Positions 3,913 through 14,649 of a stretch of 32,069 nucleotides of DNA are shown here, one piece after another (positions within the stretch are counted from its first letter, which is position 1; each line of letters begins with the position of its first letter). This DNA is from Solirubrobacterales bacterium (GTDB lineage Bacteria; Actinomycetota; Thermoleophilia; Solirubrobacterales; Solirubrobacteraceae): positions 1-32,069 of the forward strand of contig PMOY01000063.1 in NCBI GenBank assembly GCA_003165655.1, in the 5' to 3' direction. Under the pieces are notes generated by a model, which was not told where the DNA came from, did not search any database, and worked only from the letters and a program-made list of their open reading frames with translations. The translations under genes and the position numbers were made by a program.

Positions 3913-4000
3913 GCGGAGATCGCCCGTCGGAGATCGCCCGTTCCGACATCGCCCGTTCGGAGATCGCTCGTTCGGCGATCGCCCGTTCGGAGATCGCCCG
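3913..4000. repeat. 15-bp tandem repeat, about six copies, ending at a start codon
   Basis: There are six head-to-tail units, two of 14 bp followed by four of 15 bp, with consensus TTCGGAGATCGCCCG. The last base of the last unit is the G of the GTG start of the GntR gene. Most units carry GGAG, and the final one places GGAGAT 7 nt before the GTG, so the repeat supplies the ribosome binding site. The frame used by the gene has no other start codon between the stop at 3904 and 4000. An overlapping frame reads the units as a pentapeptide repeat, but I do not think it is translated. Confidence 0.85.
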
Positions 4001-4620
4001 TGAGTCCCGAGGACGCCCTGCGGGAGGCGATCGTGAGCGGCCGTCTGTTGCCCAACCAGCGTCTCGTGGAGGCCGACCTGACGCGGACGCTCGGAGTGGG
4101 TCGCTCGGCGGTGCGCGCCGCGCTCGCCCGGCTCGAGCACGAGGGACTCGTGGAGCACGAGCGCAACCGCGGCGCTCGGGTTCGGCTCGTCGAGGAGCGC
4201 GAGGCCGTGGAGATCCTCGAGGCGCGTGCTGCGCTCGAAGCGCTCGCCGCTCGACACGCGGCGACGCGGGCCGGCGAGGCGGACATCGCGGACCTGCGAC
4301 GCATCCTCAGCGAGATGCGCTGCCTGCTCGATCGCGGGGATCTGCTCAGCGCCTCGGACCAGAACGCCGTGCTGCACGAGCGCTTGCTCGAGATCGCCGG
4401 GCACGCCACGGCGGGGCGGCTGATCTCGACCCTGAAGTCGCAGCTCGTGCGCTTCCAGTACCGGACGATCCTCGTGCCGGGTCGCAGCGAGCGCTCGTTC
4501 GCCGAGCACGGGAGGATCGTCGATGCCGTGGCGGCCGGCGATCCGGACGCCGCCGAGGCGGCGATGCAGACGCACCTCTCGCACGTGGCGGAGGCGCTGC
4601 GGGGAGCCGAAAGCCGATGA
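4000..4620 (+). CDS. GntR-family transcriptional regulator, FadR/FCD subfamily
   Basis: This 206-residue DNA-binding regulator has a winged helix-turn-helix at the N-terminus (residues about 5-55, with TRTLGVGRSAVRAALARLEH) and an all-helical FCD ligand-binding domain after it. FCD domains usually bind small carboxylates through a metal held by Asp and His residues; HERLLEIAGH and the C-terminal THLSHVAEAL supply candidate His ligands. It starts at GTG 4000, the only start in its frame. The N-terminus is about ten residues shorter than in relatives, beginning just before LREAIVSGRL. Its stop overlaps the ATG of the amidohydrolase gene (ATGA), so it is probably the local regulator of the ring-cleavage genes behind it. 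The palindrome at 3875-3892 is a candidate operator. Confidence 0.9.
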   Translation: MSPEDALREAIVSGRLLPNQRLVEADLTRTLGVGRSAVRAALARLEHEGLVEHERNRGARVRLVEEREAVEILEARAALEALAARHAATRAGEADIADLRRILSEMRCLLDRGDLLSASDQNAVLHERLLEIAGHATAGRLISTLKSQLVRFQYRTILVPGRSERSFAEHGRIVDAVAAGDPDAAEAAMQTHLSHVAEALRGAESR

Positions 4621-5534
4621 GCGCCACGCCTTCGGATCGTGCTCGTGAGCTCCTTCGCGGAGCGTTCGACACGCACGTGCATATCGCGCCCGACGTCGTC
4701 GAGCGCAAGATCGATGACATCTCGCTGGCTCGCCGCTTCGGCGGGCTGGGGATGGCGGGCTTCCTCCTGAAGTCGCACTACGGCTCCACCGCGGAGCGAG
4801 CGAGCGTCGTGCGAGCGGCGGTCCCCGGAGTGCACGTGCTCGGCGCGCTCGCCCTCAACCGGGCCGTAGGCGGCATGAATCCGCTGGCGGTGGAGATCGC
4901 GGCACGCGAGGGCGCCCGTACCGTCTGGCTGCCGACCGTCGACTCGGTGAACGAATCCCATGAGCGTGACGCTCCGCCCGGGGCCAAGGTGCCGGTGTGG
5001 GTCAAGCTCCAGCTGGAGCTGCGCGAGCAGGGAATCGAAATCGAGCCGGTGCCCGTCCTCGACGACGGCGGGGCGGTGCTGCCCGCCACGCGCGCGGTGC
5101 TGGCGACGATCGCGCGAAACGGGATGCTGCTGGCCACCGGACACCTCGGCCGCGATGAGATCTTCGCGGTGGTGGAGGCGGCGCTCGAGGAGGGGGTCCG
5201 TGAGATCGTGATCACGCACCCCGAGTTTCCTTCCCAGAACCTCTCCGTCGAGGACCAGCGCGCGCTGGCCGAGCGCGGTGCGCTGCTCGAGCGGTGCTTC
5301 ACCACCCCGCACACGGGCAAGATCGAGTGGGAGCAATGGATCGAGAACATCAGGGCCGCCGGGACCGAGCACTCGATCCTCTCGACGGATCTCGGACAGA
5401 TCTTCAACCCACCGGTCGAGGACGGCATGGCGCTGATGGTGGACCGGTTGCTCGCGGCCGGCGTCGATGACCAGGAGGTGCACGTGATGGCGGTTGTGAA
5501 CACGCGCCGGGTGGCGGGAGCGGACCCGTGGTGA
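4617..5534 (+). CDS. Amidohydrolase-like protein (DUF6282 type)
   Basis: This 305-residue protein belongs to the metal-dependent amidohydrolase/TIM-barrel superfamily, most like the DUF6282 group. Visible metal-site motifs are FDTHVHIAPD (HxH) near the N-terminus, TGHLGRDEIF, VITHPEFP and ILSTDLGQ with a late Asp. The reaction is not known for this group. Its position before a GalB-like hydratase and an RraA-like aldolase resembles LigI (2-pyrone-4,6-dicarboxylate hydrolase, also an amidohydrolase-superfamily enzyme) in the protocatechuate 4,5-cleavage route. A ring-product hydrolase or decarboxylase is therefore a reasonable guess. The ATG at 4617 overlaps the regulator's stop. The end codes VAGADPW, and this 3' end is the sequence multiplied in the 35-bp repeat that follows. 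Confidence 0.85.
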   Translation: MSATPSDRARELLRGAFDTHVHIAPDVVERKIDDISLARRFGGLGMAGFLLKSHYGSTAERASVVRAAVPGVHVLGALALNRAVGGMNPLAVEIAAREGARTVWLPTVDSVNESHERDAPPGAKVPVWVKLQLELREQGIEIEPVPVLDDGGAVLPATRAVLATIARNGMLLATGHLGRDEIFAVVEAALEEGVREIVITHPEFPSQNLSVEDQRALAERGALLERCFTTPHTGKIEWEQWIENIRAAGTEHSILSTDLGQIFNPPVEDGMALMVDRLLAAGVDDQEVHVMAVVNTRRVAGADPW

Positions 5535-5639
5535 GCGCGATGACGGTGGCGGGAGCGGACGCGTGGTGAGCGCGATGACGGTGGCGGGAGTGGACGCGTG
5601 GTGAGCGCGATGACGATGGCGGGAGCGGACCCGTGGTGA
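5511..5639 (+). repeat. 35-bp tandem repeat forming three coupled 12-codon mini-ORFs
   Basis: About 3.7 copies of a 35-bp unit begin at 5511, 5546, 5581 and 5616. The first copy is the end of the amidohydrolase gene. Each copy has GGGAG, then 10 nt, then GTGA, in which a TGA stop overlaps a GTG start. Because 35 is 3n-1, the GTG in each copy opens a 12-codon frame that closes in the next copy's GTGA. This gives mini-ORFs at 5531-5569, 5566-5604 and 5601-5639, coding near-identical peptides (MSAMTVAGADAW, MSAMTVAGVDAW, MSAMTMAGADPW). The last stop overlaps GTG 5636 of the PIG-L gene. There are no spacers, so this is not a CRISPR array. Confidence 0.9.
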
Positions 5640-6352
5640 GGTCGCGGAGGATGATGGTGATCGGCGCGCACTCCGCGGACTTCGTCTGGCGCGCGGGCGG
5701 CGCGATCGCCGTGACCACCTCGGATGGGGGAGCCGCGAGCGTGATCGCGCTCTCCTACGGCGAGCGCGGCGAATCGGGTGAGCTGTGGAAGCAGGAGGGC
5801 CAGACGATCGAGCGCGTCAAGGAGATCCGCGGGGGCGAGGCCGAGCGGGCGGCCGCTGCGCTCGGAGCCGAGTTCGACTGCCTGGACCTCGGCGACTACC
5901 CACTCGAGATCGACGGCGACGCGCTGCGGACGATCTCGGACCGAATCCGCGAGTTCGCCCCGGACGTGCTGATCACGCATACCGATACCGATCCCTTCAA
6001 CCCTGATCACCCGATTGCGTCCGTGGCCGTGGCGCGGGCCCGCTCGCTGGCCGCCGGAGCGGGCGTGCAGAGCGCGTTTGCGACGGTGAACCCGCCGGAG
6101 CTGTTTCTGTTCGAGCCCCACCAACCGGAGCTGTGCAACTTCACCCCTACCACCTTCGTCGACATCACGCCCGTGATCGACAAGAAACTCGCAGCGATGG
6201 GGGAGATGAAGGCGCAGAATTACCTCGTGACCTACTACGAGCAGCGGGCCGACCATCGTGGCAACCACGCGCGCCGCAGCTCGGGGAACGCGGAGATCAG
6301 ACAGGCCGAGGCGTTCCAGCGGGTGACGCCCCAGGTGGTGAGCGCGCTGTGA
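5636..6352 (+). CDS. PIG-L family hydrolase, 4-oxalomesaconate hydratase (GalB)-like
   Basis: This 238-residue zinc-dependent LmbE/PIG-L-fold protein has the N-terminal metal motif AHSADFVWRAGG. That HSADFVWRAGG form, instead of the usual HPDD of deacetylases, is what I associate with GalB-type 4-oxalomesaconate hydratases. GalB adds water to 4-oxalomesaconate to give 4-carboxy-4-hydroxy-2-oxoadipate in gallate and protocatechuate meta-cleavage. Further motifs are THTDTDPFNPDHP (metal-site His) and a C-terminal HRGNHARRSSG. I chose GTG 5636 because it overlaps the TGA of the last mini-ORF in the 35-bp repeat; GTG 5633, ATG 5651 and GTG 5657 are alternatives, the last with GGAGG 6 nt upstream. 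The next gene is an RraA-type aldolase in a GTGA overlap, which supports the pathway call. Confidence 0.85.
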   Translation: MRSRRMMVIGAHSADFVWRAGGAIAVTTSDGGAASVIALSYGERGESGELWKQEGQTIERVKEIRGGEAERAAAALGAEFDCLDLGDYPLEIDGDALRTISDRIREFAPDVLITHTDTDPFNPDHPIASVAVARARSLAAGAGVQSAFATVNPPELFLFEPHQPELCNFTPTTFVDITPVIDKKLAAMGEMKAQNYLVTYYEQRADHRGNHARRSSGNAEIRQAEAFQRVTPQVVSAL

Positions 6353-8036: not shown

Positions 8037-8104
8037 GCTGCGCCCCCCGCCGGGCTCGTCGATGCCGGCTGCGCCGCCCGGGTCCGTCGATGCCGGCTGA
8101 GCCG
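8037..8104. repeat. 28-31 bp direct repeat around the MFS start codon
   Basis: Two copies of a unit beginning GCTGCGCC and ending GTCGATGCCG occupy 8037-8067 and 8068-8095, with the start of a third at 8096. Both copies carry an ATG. The first (8062) opens a short frame that stops at 8100; the second (8090) is the start of the transporter gene. This looks like a small tandem duplication of the translation start region. Confidence 0.6.
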
Positions 8105-9316
8105 CAGCAGCGGTCGACTCGCGAGCTGGTCGTGATCCTGGGCGCGCTGTCTGCGTTCGGGCCGCTGTCGATGGACATGTACCTGCCGGGGCTTCCCTCG
8201 CTCACGCGCCAGCTCGACGCCTCGGCGTCCACGGGCCAGTTGACGCTCACCGGGTGCATGCTTGGGATTGCCCTGGGGCAGCTGATCGCCGGTCCGGTCA
8301 GCGACTCGCTCGGCCGTCGCCGGCCGCTGCTCGCCGGTCTCGTTGGCTACACGGCCGCATCGGCCGCGTGCGCCTTCGCCCCGTCGATCTGGACGCTGAT
8401 CGTCCTGAGACTGATGCAGGGCCTCGCGGGCGGCGTCGGGGTAGTGATCGCCCGGGCGATCGTGCGCGACCTGTTCGATGGAACCACCGCGGCTAGGATG
8501 TTCGCCGCGCTGATGATGGTCACGGGCGTGGCGCCGGTGTTCGCACCGCTCGTGGGCGGGCAGGCGCTCGCGGTCACCTCGTGGCGCGGCATCTTCATCC
8601 TCCTGACCGCGATCGGCGTTCCCCTGTTCCTGGTGACACTGCGCCGTGTGCCCGAGACGCTGCCGCCGGAGCGTCGTCACGGCGGCGGTCTTGGCGCCAC
8701 GCTGCGCACCTTCCGCCGGCTGCTGAGAGATCGCCGCTTCAGTCCCTACGCGGTGTCGTTCTCACTCTCCTTTGCCGCGATGTTCGCCTACATCGCGGGC
8801 TCGTCGTTCGTGCTCGAGGATGTCTACGGGGCCTCTCCCCAGGTGTTCAGCATCGTCTTCGCTGTGAACTCGGCGGGTCTGATCGCGATGTCTCAGGTGA
8901 GCGCCCACCTGGTGGGGCGTGTGGGCCCGGCCTTCCTGCTGAGGTGCGGGCTGGGCGCCGTCGCGCTGGCCTCAGCCGCCACGCTTCTCGTCACCGTGAC
9001 CCATGCCGGCCTCGGATTGCTGCTTGTGTGCCTGTTCGTGCTCCTCGCCGGCAACGGCCTGGTCCTCCCCAACGGGACGGCAGCGGCGATGGCGGAGCAG
9101 CCCCAAGCCCTTGGAAGTGCGTCTGCCCTGCTCGGCCTGGGACAGTTCGGCTGCGGCGCGGCGGTCGCCCCGCTCGTCGGCCTTGCCGGCTCCCACGACG
9201 CGCTGCCGATGGCGATCGTGATTTCGGTCTGCGGCGTGAGCGCATTCGCCTTCAACCAGATATTCGCCCCGCGGGGAATCCGGCCCCGTGCCGCCGCGGA
9301 CCGTGGCGCTGCGTAA
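8090..9316 (+). CDS. MFS transporter, Bcr/CflA (DHA1) type
   Basis: This 408-residue integral membrane protein has about 12 hydrophobic segments. TM1 holds the SMDMYLPGLPSL signature of Bcr/CflA-type drug-proton antiporters, and the loop between TM2 and TM3 has MFS motif A as GPVSDSLGRRRP. A central Arg-rich cytoplasmic loop (RRVPETLPPERRHGG) separates the two halves. Such proteins export small hydrophobic or aromatic compounds by proton antiport. Next to the ring-cleavage genes it may export an aromatic substrate or toxic intermediate, which is inference. It begins 68 bp after the dioxygenase stop, so it could be the last gene of that operon. The start is taken at ATG 8090, inside the second copy of a short repeat. 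Confidence 0.88.
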   Translation: MPAEPQQRSTRELVVILGALSAFGPLSMDMYLPGLPSLTRQLDASASTGQLTLTGCMLGIALGQLIAGPVSDSLGRRRPLLAGLVGYTAASAACAFAPSIWTLIVLRLMQGLAGGVGVVIARAIVRDLFDGTTAARMFAALMMVTGVAPVFAPLVGGQALAVTSWRGIFILLTAIGVPLFLVTLRRVPETLPPERRHGGGLGATLRTFRRLLRDRRFSPYAVSFSLSFAAMFAYIAGSSFVLEDVYGASPQVFSIVFAVNSAGLIAMSQVSAHLVGRVGPAFLLRCGLGAVALASAATLLVTVTHAGLGLLLVCLFVLLAGNGLVLPNGTAAAMAEQPQALGSASALLGLGQFGCGAAVAPLVGLAGSHDALPMAIVISVCGVSAFAFNQIFAPRGIRPRAAADRGAA

Positions 9317-9620
9317 GCTGGGTTCCGGAAGGCAAGCTGTGCGACTGCTGGCTCCCGTGTGAGAGCCGGTGAGTTCAACGGGCTTGACACAGTCGAGCGA
9401 GCTAGCCGCCCGACGCTATGGAGAAACAGCGGGGCAGCCGACGTCGCCGGCCTCGGGTCGAAGCCACGAATTGCTCGAAACCCAGGTCAAGCCGCTCGAG
9501 GCGATTACCGCTCACAACCTACAAGACGTTCCGAGCGACCTCGAGGTTGCACTGCCTCCACAAAAGAAGGGCACGCCGAGGTCGAGATGCAACCCACTAT
9601 GAATTATTCACGACCAGTGA
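9317..9620. other. Non-coding stretch with no recognised gene
   Basis: Between the MFS stop and a repeat block lies about 300 bp with no protein I recognise on either strand. Small frames exist, but their translations are Arg- and Ser-rich and look like noise. One modest stem (GGCTC, 8 nt, GAGCC) lies near 9350-9367. It could be a terminator or a remnant of an inserted element, but I see no transposase or intron-encoded protein to support that. Confidence 0.5.
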
Positions 9621-9810
9621 CCACACGCCCGGGAGCTCGCAGACCACACGCCCGGGAGCTCGCAAGCCGCCGCCCCGGAGCTCGCATCGACCCCGGAGCT
9701 CGCACACCACCCGGGATCTCACAACCCGCCGCCCCGAAGCTCGCAAACGGCCCCGGAGCTCGCAAACGGCCCCGGAGCTCGCAAACGGCCCCGGAGCTCG
9801 CATCGACCCC
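9621..9810. repeat. Degenerate tandem repeat with core CCCCGGAGCTCGCA, about nine copies
   Basis: Nine units of about 18-23 bp share the core CCCGGAGCTCGCA, which contains the 6-bp palindrome GAGCTC. The first two units are exact 23-bp copies (9621-9643, 9644-9666), and the later ones are 19-bp units ending GCAAACGGC. One unit is degenerate (GGGATCTCACA). The block fills the space between the convergent MFS and malate/lactate-dehydrogenase-like genes and ends 1 bp before the stop of the latter. Function unknown. Confidence 0.85.
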
Positions 9811-10760: not shown

Positions 10761-12356
10761 CTACGCCACTCCGGCCGCGGCGTGCGCGCCGCTGGGCTCC
10801 CGAATCAGATCCGCCGCGCGCTCGGCGATCATGATCGTGGGAGCGTTCGTGTTGCCCCTCGTGACCTGCGGCATCACCGAGGCATCGACCACGCGCAACC
10901 CCTCGAAGCCGTAGACCCGCAGCTGTGGGTCGACGACCGATCCCATCGCGCACGTCGACGTCGGGTGATAGACGGACTGGCCAACGCGTCGGACAAAAGC
11001 CATCAAGTCCTCGTCGGAGCCCGAGTCGGGGACGCTGAACGGTGCCCGCTCGACCGCCCGCAGCGGTGCCTGGCGCGCGATCTCGAGTGCCAGTCGCATC
11101 CCCTCGAGCATGCTCTCGCGGTCCTCGTCGGTGGTCAGGAAGTTACACAGCACCCGGGGCTTGGAATCGGGTAATGGGCTGCGCAGCATCACCCGCCCGC
11201 GGCTGGTGGGGTGGATCACCACGGGGCCGAAGCAGTAGCCGTGATCCGAAGGCGCCGTCAGCCCCTCGTCGAAGAACATCGACGGCGCGAAATGGAACTC
11301 GATGTCGGGCGCGTCGACTCCCGGCCGCGCCCGGAAGAAGCCGGCCGCCTCGGGGATGTTCGAGGTCAGCGGGCCGCGACCCTCGGACTCGAGCAGCGCG
11401 ATGTTCTCCGGTGTCACCGTCATGTACAGCGAGGGCTCGTCCGTGAGGTAGTTGACTTGGGCCATGCAGTGATCCTGTAATCCGTGACCAACCGGCAGCG
11501 GTGCTCGCAGGGAGATCCCCAGCGGTGTCAGCTGGTCCTCGGGACCGATGCCTGACAGCATCAGCAGCACGGGCGACTGATACGCGCCCGCCGAGAGGAT
11601 GACTTCCCGCTCGGCGCGGATCTGCTCCACGCGGTCACCATGGGCGACCTCGACGCCCACAGCCCGGTCTCCCTCGAACAGGATCCGCAGCGCCATCATG
11701 CCCGTGATCACCTCGAGGTTGGGACGGCCGGCGGCGGGACGGAGGTAGGCGTCGGCGGTGCTGCAGCGCAGGCCATCGCGCTGTGTGAGCTGGAAGCGGC
11801 CGACGCCCTCCTGGCGGGCGCCGTTGAAGTCGGGGTTGTGCTCGTGTCCGGCTTGGCGGGCGGCCTCGAGCATGGTGTCGACGAGCGGGTGCATCGAGCG
11901 GCTCTCGGACACTCGCGTCGGTCCGCCGACTCCGTGGTAGGCGTTCTCACCGCGCTCGTTGTCCTCGGCGCGCTTGAAGTAGGGCAGGACCTCGTCGTAG
12001 CTCCAGCCCTCGCAGCCGGCCTGCGCCCAGCCGTCGTAGTCGGCACGGTTCCCGCGCACGTAGATCATCGCGTTGATCGAACTGCACCCCCCGAGCATCC
12101 GTCCCCGAGGGAGATACAGACGGCGGTTGCCCAGCCCGGGCTCTTGCTCGCCGAGCAGATCCCAGTCGAGGCCCGATTTGAACAGGGCCGGGAACGCGGC
12201 CGGAATGTGGATCTCCGGCTGGCGGTCCTCACCTCCGGCTTCGAGTAGGCCAACGCTGACGTCGCCATCCTCGCTCAGGCGGCCGGCGAGAACGCAGCCC
12301 GCAGACCCGGCGCCGACGATCACGTAGTCGTACGTTCGTTCCGGGCGCTCACTCAC
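10761..12356 (-). CDS. GMC-family choline/alcohol dehydrogenase-like flavoprotein
   Basis: This 531-residue protein closely follows the choline dehydrogenase (BetA)/AlkJ layout and would oxidise a primary alcohol or polyol using FAD. Features are the FAD motif VIVGAGSAGCVLAGRL (residues 12-27), GLLEAGG, the PRGRMLGGCSSINAMIYVRG signature (83-102), SAGAYQSPVLLMLSGIGP, and the C-terminal YHPTSTCAMG (His464) with GNTNAPT (Asn504), the expected catalytic pair. It lacks the four-Cys motif of the GMC protein at 1831-3330. The GTG start overlaps the end of the zinc alcohol dehydrogenase gene by 8 nt, so the two are co-translated and may act on the same substrate or on successive alcohols. Confidence 0.92.
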   Translation of the reverse strand: MSERPERTYDYVIVGAGSAGCVLAGRLSEDGDVSVGLLEAGGEDRQPEIHIPAAFPALFKSGLDWDLLGEQEPGLGNRRLYLPRGRMLGGCSSINAMIYVRGNRADYDGWAQAGCEGWSYDEVLPYFKRAEDNERGENAYHGVGGPTRVSESRSMHPLVDTMLEAARQAGHEHNPDFNGARQEGVGRFQLTQRDGLRCSTADAYLRPAAGRPNLEVITGMMALRILFEGDRAVGVEVAHGDRVEQIRAEREVILSAGAYQSPVLLMLSGIGPEDQLTPLGISLRAPLPVGHGLQDHCMAQVNYLTDEPSLYMTVTPENIALLESEGRGPLTSNIPEAAGFFRARPGVDAPDIEFHFAPSMFFDEGLTAPSDHGYCFGPVVIHPTSRGRVMLRSPLPDSKPRVLCNFLTTDEDRESMLEGMRLALEIARQAPLRAVERAPFSVPDSGSDEDLMAFVRRVGQSVYHPTSTCAMGSVVDPQLRVYGFEGLRVVDASVMPQVTRGNTNAPTIMIAERAADLIREPSGAHAAAGVA

Positions 12357-13383
12357 CGCGGATCACCACCTTCATCACTTCGGTCGGGTTGCTCATCGCG
12401 AAGCGGAGCGCCTCCGGCGCCTGCTCCAAGGGAAACTCGTGACTGATCATGCGCGCCAGGAGTGCGCCGTTGCGCTCGACCACCCGCACCGCCTCGGCGA
12501 ACGCGTCGCTGTCACAGCAGCTGACGCCGAGCAGGTCGAGCTCCTTCTCGGTGAGGCTGCCGATCCGCAGCGAGACCTCGTCGGTCGACATCCCGACCTG
12601 TACGGCCCGCCCCGCTGAGGCCACCATGTCGACCATCGCTCTCACGGCTCCAGGCGCTCCGGTCGCGTCGACCGCCACCGGCGGCCCTGCCGGTCCCGCC
12701 CAGCGCCGTGCGAACGCGACGACATCGTCGCGCTCGGTCCACACGAGGGTGTCTGCTCCCATCTCCCGGCTCAGCTCGAGCCGCCCCTCCTGGAGGTCGA
12801 CGACGAGCACCTTGGCACCGCGCTCACGCGCGAGGAGGCACACGCACTGGCCGATCGGTCCCGCGCCCAGCACCACTACCCGCTCGTCGGGTTCGATCGC
12901 GGCCCGGTCCGCGGCGCGCACGGCAATCGAGACCGGCTCGGCCAGCGCCGCGACGGCGGAGTCTTCGGCGCGGATCGGGAACACCTGCTCCTGGGCGGTC
13001 GACAGCAGGCCCTGGAGCCCGCCATCGACGTGGATCCCGATGAGCTCGAAGTTGTCGCACGCGTTCGGGCGCCCGACGCTGCACGGATAGCAATGCCCGC
13101 ACGCACGGAGCGGCCACAGCGCCACCTGCTGGTCGAGCTCGAGCTCCGCGCGACAGCCCGGCCCGAGCGCGGTGATCGTGCCCGCCACCTCGTGCCCTTG
13201 GACGCGCGGGAATTGCGACCCGCCTGCCGCCTCGGACAGCTCTCCGGAGAAGAAGTGGTAGTCGGAGCCGCAGATCCCGACCGCCTCAGGGTGCACGAGC
13301 ACCTGACCGGGACCGGGGGTGGGGGGGTCGGGGCGCTCGGTCATCGCCATTGCCCCGACCCTCTCGGTCACCGCCGCGCGCAT
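12349..13383 (-). CDS. Zinc-dependent alcohol (polyol) dehydrogenase, MDR family
   Basis: This 344-residue medium-chain dehydrogenase of the threonine/sorbitol/galactitol dehydrogenase type oxidises a secondary alcohol with NAD(P). Catalytic zinc ligands are Cys38 (GICGSD) and His64-Glu65 (GHE). The structural zinc site is Cys95, Cys98, Cys101 and Cys109 (CGHCYPCSVGRPNAC). The nucleotide motif is VVVLGAGPIGQC. It starts at ATG 13383, whose first codons (MRAAVTER) are a natural MDR N-terminus and are also the unit repeated upstream in a 35-bp tandem array. The ATG overlaps the TGA of the last mini-ORF (TGATG), which suggests reinitiation. The downstream GMC gene overlaps its end. Confidence 0.92.
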   Translation of the reverse strand: MRAAVTERVGAMAMTERPDPPTPGPGQVLVHPEAVGICGSDYHFFSGELSEAAGGSQFPRVQGHEVAGTITALGPGCRAELELDQQVALWPLRACGHCYPCSVGRPNACDNFELIGIHVDGGLQGLLSTAQEQVFPIRAEDSAVAALAEPVSIAVRAADRAAIEPDERVVVLGAGPIGQCVCLLARERGAKVLVVDLQEGRLELSREMGADTLVWTERDDVVAFARRWAGPAGPPVAVDATGAPGAVRAMVDMVASAGRAVQVGMSTDEVSLRIGSLTEKELDLLGVSCCDSDAFAEAVRVVERNGALLARMISHEFPLEQAPEALRFAMSNPTEVMKVVIRGE

Positions 13384-13479
13384 CAGCGCACCCGCCTCTC
13401 GGTCACCGCCGCGCGCATCAGCGCACGACCCTCTCGGTCACCGCCGCGCGCATCAGCGCACGACCCTCTCGGTCACCGC
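13356..13479 (-). repeat. 35-bp tandem repeat of the alcohol dehydrogenase 5' end with coupled mini-ORFs
   Basis: Units begin (plus coordinates) at 13361, 13396, 13431 and 13466 (partial), exactly 35 bp apart. Read on the minus strand, each has GAGAGGG or a close variant, about 10 nt, then TGATG, in which a stop overlaps the next ATG. Starts at 13453 and 13418 give 11-codon frames (MRAAVTERVVR, MRAAVTERRVR), each ending in the next TGATG. The third ATG (13383) is the real gene. A GTG overlapping the stop of the methyltransferase gene (about 13492) reads into the first mini-ORF, so stop/start links are unbroken from one gene to the next. Confidence 0.9.
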
Positions 13480-13488
13480 GACCCTGCG

Positions 13489-14649
13489 TCACCCCCACAC
13501 CTCTGCCGCGGTCTCGACGAGCAATTCGAGCTTGGCGACCTCTTGGTCGTAGCTGAGCGTATTGCCCTCGAAGGTCGAGGAGAAGCCGCACTGCGGCGAG
13601 AGGCACAGCTGCTCGATCGGGACGAAGTGCGAGGCCTCCTCGATCCGCCGCTTGAGCAGGTCCTTGCTCTCCAGCTCGCCGCGCTTGGTCGTCATCAGCC
13701 CGAGCACCACCATCTTGCCCTTGGGCACGAAGCGCAGCGGCTCGAACCCGCCCGAGCGCGTGTCGTCGTACTCGAGGAAGAAGCCGTCGATGTCCAAATC
13801 CCCGAACAGTGCCTCGGCGACGAAGTCGTAGCCGCCCTCGGACGCCCATGACGAGCGGAAATTGCCGCGGCACAGGTGAGTGGTGACGGTCAGGCCCTCC
13901 GGCCGGTGTGCGAGCGCCTCGTTGATGTGTCGAATATAGGTCTCATGCAGGTGCTCGGCGTCCTCGCCCTTGCTCTCCATCTGCTGGCGTTGGTGCGGGT
14001 CGTTGAGATACGCGAGGGTGGTGTCGTCGAACTGCAGATACCTGCAGCCCAAGTCGGCAACGGCGCGAACCTCGTCAGCGTACGCCGCGCTCAGGTCCGT
14101 CCAGAACTCCTCCACATCGGGATACACGCTCGGATCGATCGCGGCGCGGCCGCCGCGGTAGTGGACCATGCTCGGCGAGGGGATCGTCAGCTTCGGCGTG
14201 ACCCCATCCTCGACGACGCCCGTGAGGAACTCGAAGTCCTCGGCGAAGATCGGATGATCGAGATGGACCTTCTCAGCCACGTGGATGGCCGCCGGCTTGT
14301 ACTCGATCTCACCGTGCTCGTTGGTGAACTTGACCTTGATGTCGCCCGCGACCTGCTCGATCCCGCCGAGCTGGTAGATGAAGTCCATGTGCCACGACGC
14401 CCGGCGAAACTCGCCGTCGGTCGCCGACTGCAGTCCCACATCGCGCTGCATCTTCACGACCGCGCGGATCGCCTCGTCCTCCAGTGAGCGCAACTCCTCG
14501 CGCGAGATCCGGCCGGCCGCGAGCTCCTCCCGCGCGCGCAGCAGCTCGGGCGGCCGCAACAGGCTCCCCACGTGATCGGCGCGAAACGGCGGCGACGTGC
14601 GTTGGCCACCGCTGGTCGTTGTCCCGCTCGCTGTCTGTGGTTCAGCCAT
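13489..14649 (-). CDS. MetE-like (core-MetE/YxjG-type) cobalamin-independent methyltransferase
   Basis: This 386-residue protein corresponds to the C-terminal catalytic half of cobalamin-independent methionine synthase. The zinc-site residues are recognisable: His258 and Cys260 (THLCRGN), Glu293 (FFLEYDD) and Cys354 (LSPQCGF). RADHVGSLLRP at the N-terminus and YLQFDDTTLAYL (203-214) are family hallmarks. The folate-binding N-terminal half of full MetE is absent. Known short homologues move methyl groups to homocysteine or other thiols from varied donors. Inside an operon for uptake and oxidation of a compound, it may remove a methyl group from the substrate, which is inference. An AGGT ribosome site sits shortly before ATG 14649. 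Confidence 0.88.
   Translation of the reverse strand: MAEPQTASGTTTSGGQRTSPPFRADHVGSLLRPPELLRAREELAAGRISREELRSLEDEAIRAVVKMQRDVGLQSATDGEFRRASWHMDFIYQLGGIEQVAGDIKVKFTNEHGEIEYKPAAIHVAEKVHLDHPIFAEDFEFLTGVVEDGVTPKLTIPSPSMVHYRGGRAAIDPSVYPDVEEFWTDLSAAYADEVRAVADLGCRYLQFDDTTLAYLNDPHQRQQMESKGEDAEHLHETYIRHINEALAHRPEGLTVTTHLCRGNFRSSWASEGGYDFVAEALFGDLDIDGFFLEYDDTRSGGFEPLRFVPKGKMVVLGLMTTKRGELESKDLLKRRIEEASHFVPIEQLCLSPQCGFSSTFEGNTLSYDQEVAKLELLVETAAEVWG

What the first reader, a model, noticed from the sequence alone, without database searches (positions are those of the whole stretch)
13356..13479. A second, unrelated junction repeat with the same 35-bp period and the same logic
Upstream of the zinc alcohol dehydrogenase, 35-bp units duplicate that gene's own first codons. 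Each has an AGAGGG-type site, 10 nt and TGATG, giving 11-codon mini-ORFs that each stop on the next start. The first is entered from a GTG overlapping the methyltransferase stop. The sequence shares only about half its bases with the 5511-5639 repeat, and it copies the start of the downstream gene rather than the end of the upstream one. Equal period, equal spacing and equal coupling at two junctions suggest selection or a common mechanism rather than chance.
Basis: partly seen in the sequence, partly recalled or inferred. Interest (0 to 1): 0.7.

Follow-up and report, generated by a model that had tools for sequence, protein, structure and literature searches.

The report
Stop-start junction copied as ribosome relay
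A short piece of DNA where one gene ends and the next begins has been copied several times in a row, and the copy length (35 bases, three-n minus one) makes each copy a tiny reading frame that ends on the next start codon, so ribosomes could still pass from one gene to the next; related soil bacteria show the same kind of event at other gene junctions.

Summary
The repeat is real. On the minus strand, three 35-nt units, the last being the alcohol dehydrogenase start, follow a decayed 36-nt copy at the methyltransferase stop. Every step is a stop/start overlap: MT stop → GTG ORF (24 codons, in frame through the first repeat ATG) → 11-codon ORF → ADH. Best reading: slippage duplications spanning a stop/start overlap. 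When net length is 3n−1 they automatically create mini-ORFs, usually start of the downstream gene plus end of the upstream gene, that hand the ribosome on. Relatives have single-copy MT/ADH junctions, and one has an independent 26-nt duplication there; similar relays occur at SelA/SelB, LivH/LivM, GntR/DUF6282 and others. The shared property is residue 3n−1, not 35; other intergenic arrays have many periods. Controls temper selection: microhomology at overlapping junctions already favours 3n−1 about twofold, intact chains survive random substitution, and single mini-ORF relays occur near chance; only chains of two or more are in excess (7 vs 1.4), in a partly biased sample. Closest known: mycobacterial MIRUs (77 and 53 bp, both 3n−1), which work similarly but are a dispersed sequence family; this is not a member. 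New variant of a known kind; translation untested.

The parts
13489..14649 (-). Upstream gene: MetE-like cobalamin-independent methyltransferase (Pfam Meth_synt_2); stop codon TGA at 13491-13489
   Evidence: Pfam PF01717 E 2.4e-13; ORF
13489..13492 (-). GTGA: MT stop TGA overlapping a GTG start by 4 nt (entry of the relay)
13418..13492 (-). First mini-ORF, GTG start, 24 codons VTQGRGDREGRALMRAAVTERVVR*, runs in frame through the first repeat ATG (13453) and stops on the second repeat start
   Evidence: chain trace
13456..13491 (-). Decayed first copy of the unit, 36 nt (TGACGCAGGGTCGCGGTGACCGAGAGGGTCGTGCGC), ATG changed to ACG
   Evidence: read
13421..13455 (-). Repeat unit 1, 35 nt, TGATG overlap, ATG at 13453
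13386..13420 (-). Repeat unit 2, 35 nt, TGATG overlap, ATG at 13418
13383..13418 (-). Second mini-ORF, 11 codons MRAAVTERRVR*, its stop overlaps the ADH ATG by 1 nt
12349..13383 (-). Downstream gene: zinc alcohol dehydrogenase-like protein; its first ~30 nt are the last copy of the unit (MRAAVTERVG)
   Evidence: Pfam ADH_N 7e-21, ADH_zinc_N 4e-24; relatives start at the same residue
5510..5640 (+). Second array of the same class: 35-nt units at DUF6282 -> PIG-L, GTGA overlaps, mini-ORFs VSAMTVAGADAW*, VSAMTVAGVDAW*, VSAMTMAGADPW*
5636..6352 (+). PIG-L deacetylase with GTG start overlapping the last mini-ORF stop
   Evidence: Pfam PIG-L 1.5e-19; chain trace; relatives have the single-copy GTGA overlap

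Best explanation
[quoted passage not shown] Because the net length is 3n-1, each duplication creates an open mini-ORF that begins at the downstream gene's start signal and ends at the upstream gene's stop signal, which overlaps the next start. A ribosome finishing the methyltransferase can therefore terminate and re-initiate step by step (24 codons, then 11 codons) and reach the alcohol dehydrogenase start, so coupling survives an insertion of about 105 nt that would otherwise be expected to break it. Shown: array, reading frames, unbroken overlap chain, single-copy state in relatives, independent duplications in relatives. Inferred: slippage origin, ribosome relay in vivo, retention because coupling is kept.
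For: Array and chain. Relatives with the same MT-ADH gene order: direct TGATG overlap in L012, 1-nt spacer in L013/L017, 7-nt in L014, and an independent 26-nt duplication in G003 (L019) making MRAAEISG* = MRAA of ADH + EVWG-like end of MT. DUF6282/PIG-L is a single GTGA-type overlap in many relatives. Other relays: SelA/SelB period 23 VSDAEAVG*, LivH/LivM period 26 MSSARQGI*, MT/SDR period 23, GntR/DUF6282 period 17 in eight copies, PfkB/PurU 14/56, period 23 in G080, a six-mini-ORF chain in G025, and G013 whose units are 25/26 nt but whose net shift is 101 = 3n-1. At junctions duplicated across a stop/start overlap I count 11 relays (3n-1), 4 in-frame extensions (3n) and none of 3n+1. Chains with two or more mini-ORFs: 7 observed, 1.4 expected from shuffling. 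SD-like pairing before the repeat starts (-7 to -12.5 kcal/mol) is better than the median for overlapping pairs in this genome, -5.8. Literature: coupling is nearly lost at ~20 nt spacing, and 15 nt of an upstream ORF suffices for re-initiation (PMC10666635).
Against: No expression data. Random substitution leaves the chain intact in 59-97% of simulations, so intactness is no proof of selection. Single mini-ORF relays are near chance in short spacers (49 observed, 37-41 expected). Microhomology between the upstream gene's end and the downstream gene's start is itself 50-53% at lag 2 mod 3, so the phase preference is partly mutational; 0 of 15 for 3n+1 then has p about 0.02 and 11 of 15 for 3n-1 about 0.09. 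The set is partly biased (window given, some cases found by a GTGA pattern, two 25-nt unit arrays classed by net shift or composite step after the fact). The upstream-derived part of this particular unit is about 5 nt and not clearly recognisable.
Confidence: 0.62

Rival explanations
1. Pure mutational by-product: slippage arrays at junctions, phase set by codon-phase microhomology, with the relay an automatic but unimportant consequence; ADH is translated from its own ribosome-binding site.
For: Lag-2 microhomology bias; intact chains survive random change; SD-like site 10 nt before the ADH ATG, -12.5 kcal/mol; intergenic arrays of many periods in this clade.
Against: No 3n+1 net shifts at overlapping junctions (about 3 expected under the biased model); multi-link chains exceed the shuffled expectation.
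Confidence: 0.3
2. Copy-number switch: the array works as a variable-number repeat that tunes or phases ADH expression.
For: Copy number differs between species at the same junction (one, two, four); near-perfect repeats are prone to slippage (general knowledge).
Against: Only one genome per species is held, so no within-species variation could be seen; 3n-1 units keep the chain at any copy number, so adding copies would not switch it off.
Confidence: 0.05
3. A mobile repeat inserted at junctions (MIRU-like transposition).
For: Same architecture as MIRUs (PMC12548453).
Against: The unit occurs nowhere else in the genome (next best 35.6 bits) and is made of the flanking genes' own ends; units at different junctions are unrelated.
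Confidence: 0.02
4. A structural RNA element: each TGATG sits in the loop of a hairpin (GUCGUGCGC-UGAU-GCGCGCGGC) that hides the start until a ribosome opens it. This would add to the relay, not replace it.
For: Unit folds at -17.6 kcal/mol against -6.5 to -11.8 for MT/ADH junctions of relatives; whole array z -2.0.
Against: Modest z-score in a GC-rich genome; no such hairpin at the 5511 array (-7.5) or LivH/LivM (-2.9).
Confidence: 0.1

Closest known systems
MIRU, mycobacterial interspersed repetitive units (Supply 1997; described in PMC12548453)
   Same: Short tandem units between co-directional genes, each holding a small ORF coupled to its neighbour by a stop/start overlap; MIRU lengths 77 and 53 bp at senX3-regX3 (PMC4213456) are also 3n-1.
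   Different: MIRUs share sequence across many loci and appear to be mobile; here each array is made from its own two flanking genes, is unique in the genome and mostly 14-56 nt.
Termination-reinitiation at ATGA/TGATG overlapping gene pairs (PMC6728339, PMC10666635)
   Same: Uses the -4 and -1 overlaps as hand-over points; the single-copy relatives are ordinary examples.
   Different: Several hand-overs in series through mini-ORFs instead of one.
Bicistronic-design leader ORFs and natural short coupled ORFs (mentioned in PMC12548453)
   Same: A short ORF whose job may be only to deliver a ribosome to the next start.
   Different: Arises by junction duplication between two real genes rather than as a 5' leader.
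Ordinary bacterial minisatellites (VNTRs)
   Same: Tandem, slippage-prone, present at many other intergenic sites in the same genomes.
   Different: Those show no phase rule and no stop/start overlap in the unit.

Membership tests
MIRU | Unit is one of a dispersed family sharing sequence at many loci | tested here: not met
   Whole-genome search: only the window copy, next match 35.6 bits E 0.013; class-wide pattern finds it only at MT/ADH of G000 and G003 plus unrelated sites in G176
MIRU | Small ORF in the unit overlapping its neighbours' stop/start codons | tested here: met
   Chain trace
MIRU | Spread by insertion/transposition | tested here: not met
   No other copies; unit carries the ADH gene's own start; relatives show single-copy junctions
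MIRU | Coupling of the small ORF to the next gene in vivo | not testable with these tools
   No expression data
Tandem repeat / minisatellite | Head-to-tail near-identical units | tested here: met
   Period 35, 93% matches
Translationally coupled gene pair (termination-reinitiation) | Stop and start codons overlap by 4 or 1 nt at each hand-over | tested here: met
   GTGA, TGATG, TGATG
Translationally coupled gene pair (termination-reinitiation) | Downstream translation depends on upstream translation | not testable with these tools
   Needs a reporter assay

The most novel reading that the evidence does not exclude
Junction-spanning duplications of 3n-1 net length are a recurrent route by which bacteria lengthen operon spacers while keeping translational coupling, filtered by selection for the phase, and yielding self-made chimeric mini-ORF ribosome relays of up to six steps; MIRUs would be one mobile offshoot of the same principle.
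Probability: 0.35. Interest if true: 0.65.

Novelty: new variant of a known kind. Interest (0 to 1): 0.45.

Why it matters
It gives a simple arithmetic rule (net length 3n-1 at a stop/start overlap) that predicts which junction duplications should keep operon coupling, accounts for two odd repeats in this window and several in relatives at once, and makes it testable whether ribosomes can be handed on through serial mini-ORFs between real genes and whether such duplications are filtered by selection.

Tried and rejected
Dispersed or mobile repeat: rejected by genome search. Common 35-nt mechanism: rejected, other relays have other periods. Common sequence origin with the 5511 array: 19/35 identity, not above shuffles. 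Selection inferred from chain intactness: rejected by simulation (a first run of that simulation had wrong indices and is discarded). Relay in general as a surprise: single-link relays are near chance. L148 and L153 arrays (29 and 17 nt) contain a stop but no start, so they are not relays; L054 is an in-frame N-terminal extension (start-to-start 45 nt), not a relay. G176 pattern hits are an intergenic array lying antisense to its neighbours. The 'array' at L122 is a masked run of N, and L136 (12-nt period over a whole contig) is probably the same.

Full report
Setting. The window is the first 32069 bases of contig C7 of a draft genome (4.2 Mb, 434 contigs, 75.6% complete) from a genus whose near relatives are deposited as 'MAG: Solirubrobacterales bacterium' assemblies. 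The repeat lies between a MetE-like methyltransferase (MT; Pfam Meth_synt_2) and a zinc alcohol dehydrogenase (ADH), both read on the minus strand.

Observation. The array is real: period 35, 3.5 copies, 93% matches. In transcription order: MT end GAG GTG TGG GGG TGA, whose TGA begins a 36-nt decayed copy TGACGCAGGGTCGCGGTGACCGAGAGGGTCGTGCGC, then TGATGCGCGCGGCGGTGACCGAGAGGGTCGTGCGC, then TGATGCGCGCGGCGGTGACCGAGAGGCGGGTGCGC, then the ADH itself TGATGCGCGCGGCGGTGACCGAGAGGGTCGGGGCAATGG. The hand-over path traced by script is MT stop (GTGA) -> VTQGRGDREGRALMRAAVTERVVR* -> TGATG -> MRAAVTERRVR* -> TGATG -> ADH.

What the relatives show. With the same gene order, L012 has a plain TGATG overlap (TGGGGCTGATGCTGGCGGCG), L013 and L017 a 1-nt spacer, L014 a 7-nt spacer, and L019 (genome G003) an independent duplication of 26 nt giving the 8-codon ORF MRAAEISG*: its first half is the ADH start, its second half resembles the MT end EVWG*. 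The 5511 junction (DUF6282 -> PIG-L) is a single GTGA-type overlap in most relatives that keep the gene pair, and the window's 35-nt units there begin with a PIG-L-like GTGAGCGCG start and end with the DUF6282 end VAGADPW*. So units generally span the junction and weld the two genes' ends. For the ADH array about 30 of 35 nt match the downstream start, and the 5-nt remainder (TGCGC) is too short to assign.

The arithmetic. If a duplication spans a -4 or -1 overlap, the ORF opened at the first start reaches the next stop/start only when the length is 2 mod 3; it is then open by construction, because it reads the downstream gene's frame and then the upstream gene's frame. Length 0 mod 3 gives an N-terminal extension of the downstream gene; length 1 mod 3 breaks the hand-over. 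In about 2.0 Mb of sampled sequence plus about 0.4 Mb of fetched loci I found relays at SelA/SelB (23 nt, three copies), LivH/LivM (26), MT/SDR (23, via TTGA), GntR/DUF6282 (17, eight copies, chain intact although two copies have lost ATGA), PfkB/PurU (14 and 56), and, through a pattern search, G080 (23), G025 (steps of 17 and 8, six mini-ORFs in series) and G013 (units 25/26 but net 101 nt, one 34-codon ORF ending on the gene start). Gene names for PfkB, PurU, GntR, LivH, LivM and SDR are my reading of the sequences; SelA, SelB, MT, ADH, DUF6282 and PIG-L were confirmed with Pfam. Extensions: L040, L037, L132, L054. None with a 3n+1 net shift. Coding-region repeats in the sample are all 0 mod 3, and other intergenic arrays have many periods.

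Controls that lower the claim. (a) Exact matches of 5-7 nt between the end of the upstream gene and the start of the downstream gene at 308 overlapping junctions fall at lag 2 mod 3 in 50-54% of cases, because codon phases line up there, so slippage itself favours 3n-1. Against that background, 11 of 15 at 3n-1 has p about 0.09 and 0 of 15 at 3n+1 about 0.02; against a uniform background both are about 0.002. (b) Random substitutions at the observed level keep the chain in 59-97% of trials. (c) Among 680 co-directional pairs with gaps of 2-200 nt, 49 have some relay against 37-41 expected; only chains of two or more mini-ORFs stand out, 7 against 1.4, and three or more, 3 against 0.24, and three of the seven came from the window or from a search aimed at such patterns.

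Function. Published work in E. coli and Haloferax finds re-initiation largely lost at about 20 nt spacing and 15 nt of upstream ORF sufficient (PMC10666635). A 105-nt stop-to-start distance with no relay would thus be expected to uncouple ADH from MT; the relay would prevent this. SD-like pairing ahead of each repeat start is better than the genome's median for overlapping pairs, and in the ADH array the TGATG lies in the loop of a -17.6 kcal/mol hairpin, which could make the start depend on an arriving ribosome; that hairpin is specific to this array. None of this is shown in vivo.

Comparison. The closest known things are mycobacterial MIRUs: repeated units between genes whose ORF is coupled to its neighbour with a -4 spacing (PMC12548453), with lengths 77 and 53 bp at senX3-regX3 (PMC4213456), both 3n-1. 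The present arrays work alike but fail the defining MIRU feature of a dispersed, shared sequence. I therefore file them as a new variant of a known kind: self-made, locus-specific, MIRU-like relays. I found no paper describing this pattern in the library searched, which misses most subscription journals.

Noticed in passing
L252 (G025 C46, about 1425-1535): Six mini-ORFs in series (VSTRGGVST*, VRVVSGGGLSA*, VSREGS*, VSA*, VSREGS*, VSA*) linked by GTGA overlaps lead from one gene's stop to the next gene's start; steps of 17 and 8 nt dominate.
   Followed up: partly
L050 (G023 C486, about 1306-1440): Eight 17-nt units with ATGACGGGGCATCAGGC between GntR and DUF6282 genes; two copies lost ATGA yet the chain still reaches the gene start.
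   Followed up: yes
window 3914-4001, 8037-8105, 9619-9802: Further minisatellites (15, 28, 23 and 19 nt) upstream of a GntR-type regulator, between a dioxygenase-like gene and an MFS gene, and between the MFS gene and a dehydrogenase; this contig is unusually rich in arrays.
   Followed up: partly
L015, L016, L024: In some relatives the ADH directly follows a glyoxalase-family gene and the MT is missing; in L016 a stretch ACGGCGGCCGAGGTGGGGAGCTGA resembling the MT end remains, suggesting an MT deletion.
   Followed up: no
window 13421-13460: The repeat unit's TGAT is the loop of a GC-rich inverted repeat (GUCGUGCGC/GCGCGCGGC) absent from relatives' junctions.
   Followed up: partly
L086 (G101 C583, 1790-1830): Relay using a rare TTGA overlap: TTG ACG GCC GAG GAG GTC CGG GGT TGA, 8 codons, onto a TTG-started dehydrogenase.
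   Followed up: partly
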